Source: Volutella citrinella (Eukaryota > Ascomycota > Sordariomycetes > Hypocreales > Nectriaceae). From it: a stretch of 64,000 nt of DNA. The stretch's first letter is position 1; each line of letters starts with the position of its first letter. The DNA is taken from contig JAWZSP010000002.1 of the NCBI GenBank assembly GCA_034401135.1, positions 2,542,001 through 2,606,000 on the forward strand, given 5' to 3'. The notes beneath the pieces are model-generated. The model did not search any database and was not told the DNA's origin. It saw nothing but the letters and a program-made list of their open reading frames with translations. Position numbers and translations under genes: made by a program. Of the stretch, positions 17,702 to 61,460 are shown piece by piece.

Positions 17702-19351
17702 TTAACCCATGATCATGCCCTTCATGCCGGACAGATCTCCCTCCTTGGCGGCGATTTCGAAGTAACCATAGATGATGCTAGCAATTCATATTAGCATGGA
17801 TCAAAGTGTAGATTAATTGGGTGAAACTTACGTGACGGCAAGGAGAGTTCCGGTGCCAGAGCCGAGGGCACCGAGGAGGTCGCTGGAGACCGAGAGGGCG
17901 CCAATGCAGGCACCACCGAAGGCAGCGGCAGTGGGAATGATGCGCTTCAGCTCCTTGTACATGCTCTGGTCACGGTGACCGGCCATGACAAGTCCCTGAT
18001 CCTTGAGCTGCTTGGCAACATCGCGGGGGCTGGAGCCAGACACCTCAATCCAGGTCTTGGAGAAGAGAGCGCAGGCACCGAGCATGTAGACAATGTAGAC
18101 GGCCATGTGGATGGGGTCAAGAAGAGCCTCCTTGATGTTCAGGGGAGGAGACATGTAGTAAACAAGACCGGAGACAGCGTGGAGCTGAGAAGAGCCGTCC
18201 TTGGCCTCCCAGACACCAAAGAGACGGACAAGAAGGTTCTCCGAGAAGCGAGAGTACAGCATCTGGCTGATGAGGAAGATGTTGGACGAAAGAGCGGACT
18301 GCAGCATGATGGGCATGTTGGAGGTGTAGAAGAGGCGGACGGGGTACGAGCCACGAGCACCACGCTGTCGGGAGGACTTGACGGGGATCTCGACGCGGAA
18401 GCCCTGGAGGTAGATGACGGCGGCGAAGACGGCGAGGGTAGCCAGCAGGTTCATGATGTTGGGCAGGTTCTGCCTGTAGAAGGCCTCCTGGAGAGCACGC
18501 TGCTTGTTGGGCCAGGTCATGAGGAGGTGGAAGAGGGCAATGACAGCACCCTCAAACTCGGGGCCACGGCCAGTGTTGATGGTGGTGGGGGAGAAGGCCT
18601 TCCACATGATGGACTCGCAGATGTTGGTGGCGATGAACAGAGAGATACCGCTGCCCAGGCCATAGCCCTTCTGGAGGAGCTCGTCAAGGAGGATGACAAT
18701 CATGCCAGCAACAACCAGCTGGAGGATCAGGAGGAAGACAATACCAGCACCAAGGTCGGAGGGAGGGCCGTAGAGACCGCTGAAGACGTAAACGGTGGCA
18801 GTACCGGCGGACAGGATGAAAGCGAGGAGCTTCTGGGCGGTCTGGTAGAGTTCGCGGTCGGACTTGAGGTCAAGGTTGACGTCGATCATGTGGGTACCAG
18901 CGAGGAGCTGGAAGACCATGCCAGAGGAGATGATGGGGGTAATGCCCAATTCCATCAGGGTTCCGCGGTTACTCGCGATGACCATTCGTAGCCAGTAGAG
19001 GGGGTCAGAGTTGTCGGACGAGACAATGCCGTACAGAGGCATCTGGCTCATGACCAGGAAGATGAGGAGAGTGAGGGCCGTCCACATCAGCTTCTGGTTG
19101 AAGGGGATCTTGGTCTCCGGCTGCTGAACCTCAGGGAGGAACGGCACGAACGGCTTGACCAGGTCGAGGAATCGGACTGTAGGGCGCATCAAATGTTAGC
19201 TCTCGTCGTGCTGCGAATAGCTGCGCGCGGTGCGACGCCAATTGCGCGCTGCCGCCGTGGTCGTGCGAGCATGTCGCGACAGACGGTGGGCAGGATCAGG
19301 TTTGCGCACAGGGGGTGACGGGAAGGTTGGCGGGCACTTACGGGAACTCAT
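17702..19351 (-). CDS. SEC61: Sec61 translocon, alpha subunit
   Basis: Three exons, 19351-19342, 19176-17832 and 17777-17702, give 476 residues, the usual length for this family. The first coding exon is only 10 nt (MSS plus one base), followed by a 165-nt intron. Correct splicing restores the conserved start [20 protein letters not shown], and the last 54-nt intron adds the terminal helix and tail ending MKGMIMG. The protein forms the protein-conducting channel of the ER membrane. Visible family marks are the plug region around residues 60-75, QKLMWT before the first helix, GSGISLF in the middle helices and the positively charged loop [15 protein letters not shown] that contacts ribosomes. 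The gene is divergent from the isopentenyltransferase gene. The identification is firm. Confidence 0.97.
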
Positions 19352-61325: not shown

Positions 61326-61455
61326 GGATCGATAGCTCAGTGGTAGAGGTATGGGACAACATGGCTCCTGTACACCTGTGAAACATCATATCTAACAATT
61401 CCTCAGCGAGAGATTGCAGATCTCTAGGTCGCGTGTTCGATCCACGCTCGGTCCT
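61326..61455 (+). tRNA. tRNA-Cys(GCA) interrupted in the D-arm by a spliceosomal-type intron
   Basis: The exons are 61326-61348 and 61407-61455. Joined, they give 72 nt that fold without a mismatch in any stem: acceptor GGATCGA/TCGGTCC (one T-G wobble), linker TA, D-stem GCTC/GAGC with loop AGTGGTA (A14, G18, G19), G26, anticodon stem AGAGA/TCTCT with loop TTGCAGA (anticodon GCA), variable AGGTC, T-stem GCGTG/CACGC with loop TTCGATC, and discriminator U73. U73 and the GCA anticodon are the universal Cys identity marks. The A box (TAGCTCAGTGGT, 61333-61344) is intact before the insert and a B box (TGTTCGATCCA, 61434-61444) after it. A T run follows. Position 37 is G, so this tRNA is not a substrate for the A37 isopentenyltransferase encoded at 20.4 kb. 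Without removal of the insert the D-stem lacks its fourth pair. Confidence 0.92.
61349..61406 (+). other. 58-nt intron with spliceosomal signals inside the tRNA gene
   Basis: The insert begins GTATGG and ends with a CTAAC branch-like motif at 61392-61396, nine bases and then CAG... in full, TCTAACAATTCCTCAG at 61391-61406. It splits the 3' strand of the D-stem between nucleotides 24 and 25. Its length, donor, branch sequence and branch-to-acceptor spacing match mRNA introns in this window (47-165 nt, many 54-60 nt). It has no run of four T residues that would stop Pol III. The anticodon loop, where the tRNA endonuclease acts, is uninterrupted. Confidence 0.85.
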
Positions 61456-61460
61456 TTTTT
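61456..61460 (+). terminator. Pol III terminator of the tRNA-Cys gene
   Basis: Five T residues directly follow the discriminator T (six in all from 61455), enough for RNA polymerase III termination. Confidence 0.85.

What the first reader, a model, noticed from the sequence alone, without database searches (positions are those of the whole stretch)
61326..61455. A tRNA gene whose D-arm is split by an mRNA-type intron
Seen: removal of the 58-nt stretch from GTATGG to CAG yields a flawless tRNA-Cys(GCA) with U73, A and B boxes and a T-run terminator; the insert carries a CTAAC branch motif and the size of local mRNA introns. Known: nuclear tRNA introns sit at 37/38 and are cut by the Sen endonuclease; noncanonical positions are known in archaea and some red algae. 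Spliceosomal introns have been found in noncoding RNAs such as fission-yeast U6 (Pol III) and ascomycete rRNA. Inferred: here a Pol III transcript depends on the spliceosome for tRNA maturation. I know of no described case in a nuclear tRNA.
Basis: partly seen in the sequence, partly recalled or inferred. Interest (0 to 1): 0.97.

Follow-up and report, generated by a model that had tools for sequence, protein, structure and literature searches.

The report
Spliceosomal-type introns inside fungal tRNA genes
In this fungal genome nine tRNA genes of four kinds, including all four genes found for the phenylalanine tRNA, are interrupted by inserts that look like the introns of protein-coding genes, so the cell likely needs its messenger-RNA splicing machine to make tRNAs that protein synthesis cannot do without.

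Summary
Removing window 61349-61406 (58 nt, GTATGG...TCTAAC...CAG) leaves a clean tRNA-Cys(GCA). Nine such genes in four families were found in the genome: Cys(GCA), 2 interrupted of 4 loci; Ser(CGA), 2 of 2; Phe(GAA), 4 of 4; Thr(CGU), 1 of 1. All nine introns are 51-59 nt, read GTRNG...[AG]TCTAACA[AT]...YAG, and lie between box A and box B at 20/21, 24/25 or 33/34, not at the canonical 37/38. None shows a strict bulge-helix-bulge. Paralogous exons are identical or nearly so (Cys 2/72 differences, Ser 0/82, Phe 0 over four copies), while intron interiors diverge (Ser: to shuffle level) and the splice signals stay. Other tRNAs of this genome have short (16-24 nt) anticodon-loop introns. No uninterrupted Phe or Ser(CGA) gene was found, so decay is very unlikely. 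Best explanation: Pol III transcription, then spliceosomal removal. Neither was tested: there were no RNA data, and no related genomes could be searched. Ten literature searches listed no spliceosomal intron in a nuclear tRNA; the nearest precedent is the Pol III-transcribed U6 of fission yeast. The inventory is a lower bound.

The parts
61326..61348 (+). tRNA-Cys(GCA) exon 1, nucleotides 1-24 (no nucleotide 17)
61333..61343 (+). box A-like element TAGCTCAGTGG, intact in exon 1
   Evidence: sequence read; motif recalled
61349..61406 (+). 58-nt mRNA-type intron between nucleotides 24 and 25 (3' strand of the D stem)
61349..61354 (+). 5' splice site GTATGG
61392..61396 (+). branch motif CTAAC, in context ATCTAACAA, starting 15 nt from the intron's 3' end
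61404..61406 (+). 3' splice site CAG
61407..61455 (+). tRNA-Cys(GCA) exon 2, nucleotides 25-73, identical (49 of 49) to exon 2 of the second interrupted gene at C1:2025287-2025335
61416..61418 (+). anticodon GCA
61435..61443 (+). box B-like element GTTCGATCC in exon 2
   Evidence: sequence read; motif recalled
61456..61460 (+). run of five T after U73, Pol III terminator-like

Best explanation
This is a tRNA-Cys(GCA) gene on a fungal chromosome whose D stem is interrupted by a 58-nt insert with mRNA-type splice signals; [quoted passage not shown] Shown: the anatomy, eight more genes of the same build in the same genome, constraint on exons and splice signals, and no intact Phe(GAA) or Ser(CGA) gene found. 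Inferred: Pol III reads through the intron, because box A and box B lie intact on either side. U1 would pair with GTRNG and U2 with TCTAAC, a lariat would be released, and the joined exons would fold and be matured as usual. The spliceosome would thus do for these tRNAs what the tRNA splicing endonuclease presumably does for the short anticodon-loop introns that the same genome also carries.
For: Nine interrupted loci in four isoacceptor families were found, by BLAST with the joined exons, which is blind to intron motifs, and by motif patterns that first led to the Ser, Phe and Thr families. 9 of 9 introns are 51-59 nt with GTRNG, [AG]TCTAACA[AT], CTAAC starting 14-17 nt from the end, and YAG. 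9 of 9 joined forms are called the expected tRNA; 0 of 9 unjoined forms are called in ARAGORN default mode. Of 501 mRNA-like excisions in everything held, only those at these nine loci give a tRNA across the junction. In both Ser genes only one excision register restores the tRNA, and it is exactly GT...AG (sequences). All nine introns lie between box A and box B. 9 of 9 loci have T5 or longer within 45 nt downstream; 355 of 18,274 background windows do. Exon versus intron-interior identity: Cys 70/72 vs 22/34, p = 1.4e-5; Ser 82/82 vs 15/32, p = 7.6e-12. No strict bulge-helix-bulge in 9 of 9. 4 of 4 Phe loci, 2 of 2 Ser(CGA) and 1 of 1 Thr(CGU) are interrupted. [quoted passage not shown]
Against: There are no RNA data: neither transcription nor splicing is shown. 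No related genome could be searched (searches covered viral and prokaryotic contigs only and found nothing). Two intact tRNA-Cys(GCA) genes exist, so the window's gene may be dispensable. The Ser introns sit in the anticodon loop, close enough to 37/38 that the tRNA endonuclease cannot be excluded there; ARAGORN with introns allowed finds both at this very boundary and cmscan scores them over the gathering cut-off with their inserts. With introns allowed ARAGORN also makes a tRNA of each of the 7 other unjoined loci, though of the wrong identity or anticodon. The 5' splice sites vary among families (GTATG, GTAAG, GTGAG), and the few mRNA introns compared have more varied branch words and distances (CTGAC, CTGAT, CTAAT, CTAAC, 16-25 nt) than the tRNA introns. 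Bulge-helix-bulge was tested in its strict form only.
Confidence: 0.87

Rival explanations
1. The inserts are non-canonical tRNA introns cut by the tRNA splicing endonuclease (Sen complex), as supposed for red algae and nucleomorphs, and their GT-AG look is incidental.
For: Non-canonical introns removed from D, anticodon and T arms are known in Cyanidioschyzon and nucleomorphs (PMC4090602 section 5; PMC9602550 passages). In the same genome 5 tRNA genes are called with 16-24 nt anticodon-loop introns, so an endonuclease is presumably at work. The Ser introns lie in the anticodon loop.
Against: No strict bulge-helix-bulge at 9 of 9 junctions (relaxed forms were not judged). Lengths of 51-59 nt against 16-24 nt. 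GTRNG, TCTAACA and YAG kept in 9 of 9 while interiors diverge; an endonuclease reading structure would not need these words.
Confidence: 0.08
2. The interrupted genes are decaying pseudogenes in which an element was inserted; intact genes supply the tRNA.
For: Two intact tRNA-Cys(GCA) genes exist. A review notes that insertions in D or T arms of single eukaryotic tRNA genes are supposed to mark pseudogenes (PMC4090602 section 5).
Against: 0 intact of 4 Phe, 0 of 2 Ser(CGA), 0 of 1 Thr(CGU) loci found. Exons identical or nearly so between paralogues whose intron interiors (and, for Ser, flanks) are far diverged or no more alike than shuffles. Compared with the intact Cys genes the interrupted pair carries a compensated change on both sides of the anticodon stem (AGAGA/TCTCT vs AGGGA/TCCCT).
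Confidence: 0.03
3. The tRNAs are embedded in Pol II transcripts and spliced there as part of an mRNA or long RNA, not from Pol III precursors.
For: Spliceosomal splicing is normally coupled to Pol II (general knowledge).
Against: Box A and box B both intact around every intron, T5 or longer downstream of 9 of 9, and no Pfam family in the 6 ORFs beyond window 58 kb that I tested, of the many listed there.
Confidence: 0.02

Closest known systems
mRNA-type intron of the fission-yeast U6 snRNA gene (Tani and Ohshima 1989, 1991; seen as cited in PMC8917221 and PMC10484740 passages)
   Same: Pol III transcript with an mRNA-type intron that the spliceosome removes
   Different: Host RNA is an snRNA of the spliceosome itself and the intron is thought to come from reverse splicing near U6's catalytic nucleotides; here four tRNA families, nine genes, three positions. 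The best U6 hit in this genome is contiguous.
Canonical eukaryotic tRNA introns (Sen endonuclease plus ligase)
   Same: Interrupt nuclear tRNA genes between box A and box B; such short introns are called in other tRNAs of the same genome
   Different: Position 37/38, 16-24 nt here, no mRNA-type splice words; cut by a protein endonuclease
Non-canonical introns of Cyanidioschyzon merolae and nucleomorph tRNA genes
   Same: Introns in the D arm and other unusual positions of eukaryotic tRNA genes
   Different: Associated with bulge-helix-bulge motifs in C. merolae, 3-24 nt in Guillardia (PMC4090602 section 5); here no strict such motif, and mRNA-type signals
Spliceosomal introns in ascomycete rDNA (Bhattacharya et al. 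2000; only the reference entry seen)
   Same: mRNA-type introns in a structural RNA of ascomycetes
   Different: rRNA, not tRNA; Pol I rather than Pol III (general knowledge)

Membership tests
U2-type spliceosomal introns | GT...AG ends with an extended 5' site | tested here: met
   9 of 9 GTRNG...YAG
U2-type spliceosomal introns | branch motif at a short distance from the 3' end | tested here: met
   9 of 9 TCTAACA[AT], CTAAC starting 14-17 nt from the end
U2-type spliceosomal introns | length in the range of the genome's mRNA introns | tested here: met
   51-59 nt against 53-77 nt for 6 mRNA introns, 5 of them ab initio only; small sample
U2-type spliceosomal introns | interior free to diverge, signals kept | tested here: met
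   Ser interior 15/32 identical, shuffle mean 14.0; Cys 22/34, shuffle mean 16.0, maximum 23
U2-type spliceosomal introns | removed through a lariat by the spliceosome | not testable with these tools
   no RNA data
nuclear tRNA genes (Pol III) | cloverleaf with the right anticodon after intron removal | tested here: met
   9 of 9 by ARAGORN
nuclear tRNA genes (Pol III) | box A, box B and T-run terminator | tested here: met
   boxes read in the sequences; T5 or longer within 45 nt in 9 of 9
nuclear tRNA genes (Pol III) | transcribed and matured | not testable with these tools
   no RNA data
canonical tRNA introns (Sen type) | inserted at 37/38 | tested here: not met
   20/21 (Phe), 24/25 (Cys, Thr), 33/34 (Ser) (numbered by hand sequences)
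BHB introns of archaea and red algae | bulge-helix-bulge at the two junctions | tested here: not met
   0 of 9 with a 4-bp central helix and 3-nt bulges; shuffled introns 0-6 of 500; relaxed forms not judged
tRNA pseudogenes | exons decay at the rate of their surroundings | tested here: not met
   Fisher p = 1.4e-5 (Cys), 7.6e-12 (Ser), exon vs intron interior

The most novel reading that the evidence does not exclude
In this fungus the spliceosome has become an obligatory tRNA-processing machine: all cytosolic Phe tRNA and all Ser(CGA) tRNA pass through it, so translation of practically every protein depends on mRNA-type splicing of Pol III transcripts, side by side with the classical endonuclease pathway that serves other tRNAs of the same cell. 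Three insertion positions in four families suggest repeated intron gain, a recurrent route and not an accident.
Probability: 0.75. Interest if true: 0.97.

Novelty: new variant of a known kind. Interest (0 to 1): 0.94.

Why it matters
Nuclear tRNA introns and mRNA introns are treated as separate worlds, with separate enzymes. If these introns are removed by the spliceosome, that separation is not fundamental: a tRNA can be a spliceosome substrate, a Pol III transcript can be spliced routinely, and a whole amino acid can depend on it. It offers a natural system to ask how splicing works without Pol II, a cap or poly(A), and how introns enter structured RNA. There is a practical side too: standard finders do not report the Phe, Cys or Thr genes correctly (0 of 7 such loci by ARAGORN default, wrong calls with introns allowed; none over the Rfam cut-off), so other genomes may hide the same thing.

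Tried and rejected
Relatives: patterns for an interrupted tRNA-Cys in viral contigs and genome contigs found 0 matches; these collections are viral and prokaryotic, so this says nothing about conservation in fungi. The genome tool offers no relatives for this genome.

Pattern TAGCNNAG...GTRNG...GTTCRANNC, meant to find further families, was asked 11 times and did not complete, so four families is a lower bound. Pattern TGGCNNAG...: 48 hits against 24 in the reversed-pattern control; 2 are the Ser(CGA) loci, many are a subtelomeric repeat, and the 30 whose loci were held (L047-L076) gave no tRNA on mRNA-like excision. Pattern TAGTNNAG...: 6 hits against 46 in the control; none of the 6 gives a tRNA. 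Pattern CTAAC...YAG...GTTCRANNC: 79 hits, fewer than the control (156), so the pattern itself is not enriched; 9 are the loci reported here, 1 lies in the intact Ser(UGA) gene and 1 in the tRNA-Gln(TTG) gene of L104, and the other 68 were read by eye in the listed letters only. A CTGAC version was not run, nor other B-box forms.

Phe-anticodon patterns: one search listed only the first places (C1-C4) of 177; the narrower one search listed all 48 (control 48): four are the Phe loci, one (C6:3971797) looks like the tail of a different tRNA, and the other 43 were judged by eye in the letters shown, not scored. An intact Phe gene with a canonical intron would escape this pattern, though not the BLAST if its exons were similar.

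mRNA intron statistics: a first hexamer script printed no intron; the relaxed one gave 5. An SRP RNA precedent that I recalled was checked and dropped: that paper argues against introns (PMC4605306 passages). U6 of this genome: best hit contiguous.

Papers: 10 searches. Searches returned nothing; in the other six I saw titles and starts of abstracts, none of which describes a spliceosomal intron in a nuclear tRNA. The library holds only open-licence PMC papers.

Corrections made on re-checking: 6, not 5, ORFs beyond 58 kb were scanned; subtelomeric-sequence counts were recounted; L080-L085 and all held loci were tested by script instead of by eye.

Full report
What was checked. The window is G000:C2:2542001-2606000 of a 45.1-Mb genome in 26 contigs. 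Its proteins point to an ascomycete of the Hypocreales: a Sec61 alpha is 96% identical to that of Purpureocillium takamizusanense (Sec61 is very conserved), and the zinc-cluster regulator nearest to the tRNA is 70% identical to one of Neonectria magnoliae. The species was not identified.

The locus. Positions 61326-61348 and 61407-61455 join to a 72-nt tRNA-Cys(GCA) with paired acceptor, D, anticodon and T stems and U73, followed by five more T. The insert 61349-61406 begins GTATGG and ends ATCTAACAATTCCTCAG. By standard numbering it lies between nucleotides 24 and 25, in the 3' strand of the D stem. ARAGORN (default) and Rfam at gathering threshold see nothing here; with introns allowed ARAGORN makes a tRNA-Cys(ACA) with a 36-nt intron of it. 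In the whole window 2 of 1,150,920 stretches of 51-59 nt carry GTRNG, CTAAC 14-17 nt from the end and YAG; this insert is one, and the other is one of my ab initio mRNA introns. Of 501 mRNA-like excisions tried in everything held, only those at the nine loci below gave a tRNA across the junction.

A second copy. A BLAST search of the genome with the joined exons gave four loci. Two tandem genes at C1:5545603-5545674 and C1:5545908-5545979 are intact (ARAGORN). The fourth, C1:2025205-2025335, has a 59-nt intron at the same place. Between the two interrupted genes the exons differ at 2 of 72 positions, while the intron interior matches at 22 of 34 aligned columns (shuffle mean 16.0, maximum 23); p = 1.4e-5 for exon against interior. 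Downstream flanks are still recognisably related (local score 30, shuffles at most 14), upstream ones are not (13 against at most 14). Against the intact pair the interrupted pair has a compensated change in the anticodon stem.

Three more families. Pattern searches pointed to them and BLAST with joined exons counted them: tRNA-Ser(CGA), C6:1644638-1644770 (+) and C6:1648209-1648346 (-), introns of 51 and 56 nt at 33/34; tRNA-Phe(GAA), C2:977227-977356 (-), C2:1954226-1954355 (-), C5:1120463-1120592 (+) and C5:1120727-1120853 (+), introns of 57, 57, 57 and 54 nt at 20/21; tRNA-Thr(CGU), C2:3333500-3333622 (-), intron of 51 nt at 24/25. All nine introns read GTRNG...[AG]TCTAACA[AT]...YAG. All nine joined forms are called the expected tRNA by ARAGORN, none of the unjoined in default mode; with introns allowed the two Ser loci are called correctly at this boundary and the other seven with a wrong identity or anticodon. 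In Ser only one excision restores the tRNA and it is exactly GT...AG; in Phe and Thr two and in Cys three equivalent registers exist, one of them GT...AG (read from the sequences). Every intron lies between box A and box B, and T5 or longer follows within 45 nt in 9 of 9 (background 355 of 18,274).

No intact Phe or Ser(CGA) found. BLAST with the joined Phe found 4 candidates, all 4 interrupted. A pattern for a Phe anticodon loop at the right distance from a T loop lists 48 places, the same as its control; four are the Phe genes (the others judged by eye from the listed letters). For Ser, 7 candidates were scored: the 2 interrupted Ser(CGA), 1 Ser(UGA) and 4 Ser(AGA). For Thr(CGU), 1 candidate; Thr(AGU) and Thr(UGU) genes exist elsewhere. 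That Ser(CGA) is essential in budding yeast is recalled, not tested. The same subtelomeric sequence lies 6-8 kb from the low end of eleven contigs and near the high end of 7 of the 8 among them whose length I saw (lengths), so the assembly looks near-complete; this is inference.

Constraint. The two Ser genes have identical exons (82 of 82), flanks no more alike than shuffles, and intron interiors at shuffle level (15/32, shuffle mean 14.0), with the splice words kept (p = 7.6e-12). The four Phe genes have identical exons; three introns are similar to each other (51-54 of 57) and the fourth is diverged (38-40 of 58).

Which machine. Of 25 other tRNA genes examined (20, chosen to include the longest hits, and 5), 5 are called with an anticodon-loop intron of 16-24 nt, none beginning GT and ending AG, so the ordinary pathway is present by inference. 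A search for a strict bulge-helix-bulge at the nine junctions found none; shuffled introns gave it in 0 to 6 of 500, so this test has little power alone. Lengths and ends match local mRNA introns: a Sec61 intron read against a homologue (17778-17831, -, 54 nt, GTAAGT...GCTAAT...CTAG) and five ab initio introns of 53-77 nt. The branch words of those six are more varied than those of the tRNA introns. The spliceosome is the simplest machine that reads these signals. That a Pol III transcript can be its substrate is established for fission-yeast U6 (PMC8917221, PMC10484740, passages).

Literature. A review of tRNA introns knows non-canonical eukaryotic introns from nucleomorphs and Cyanidioschyzon and has no occurrence of 'spliceosom' (PMC4090602; section 5 and passages). 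The passages of the tRNAscan-SE 2.0 paper that I saw treat non-canonical introns in archaea (PMC8450103). Ten searches listed no description of a spliceosomal intron in a nuclear tRNA (listings and starts of abstracts seen).

What is shown and what is not. Shown: the anatomy, its recurrence, the constraint, and that no intact Phe or Ser(CGA) gene was found. Inferred: transcription by Pol III, removal by the spliceosome, dependence of translation on it. Not known: distribution in other fungi, origin of the introns, and whether more families are affected, since one planned pattern search did not complete.

Noticed in passing
G000 C1-C11, 6-8 kb from contig ends: A conserved subtelomeric sequence (TGGCCAAGGCAAGATCCAG...) lies near the low end of eleven contigs and near the high end of most, suggesting eleven nearly telomere-to-telomere chromosomes.
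   Followed up: no
G000 C16 (75,286 bp) and C26 (37,643 bp): C16 is twice the length of C26 and repeats its tRNA hits at a 37,643-bp spacing: a mitochondrial genome assembled once and as a dimer, by the look of it.
   Followed up: no
L086, L087, L088; L089: All four Phe genes have a G5-A68 mismatch and the Thr(CGU) gene a T5-C68 mismatch in the acceptor stem (sequences, by reading); no explanation sought.
   Followed up: no
L088 (C5:1120593-1120630 and 1120854-1120890): In two Phe genes the trailer between the tRNA and the T run holds a short inverted repeat (by reading).
   Followed up: no
C3:5044332-5044432 and C4:4224003-4224062: A second, diverged U6-like sequence (65.7 bits) and a weaker U6-like match (43.2 bits, below cut-off) besides the main U6 at C2:4256403-4256508.
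   Followed up: no
L077, C6:1644638-1648346: The two interrupted Ser(CGA) genes face each other across about 3.4 kb, although their flanks and intron interiors are no more alike than shuffles.
   Followed up: partly
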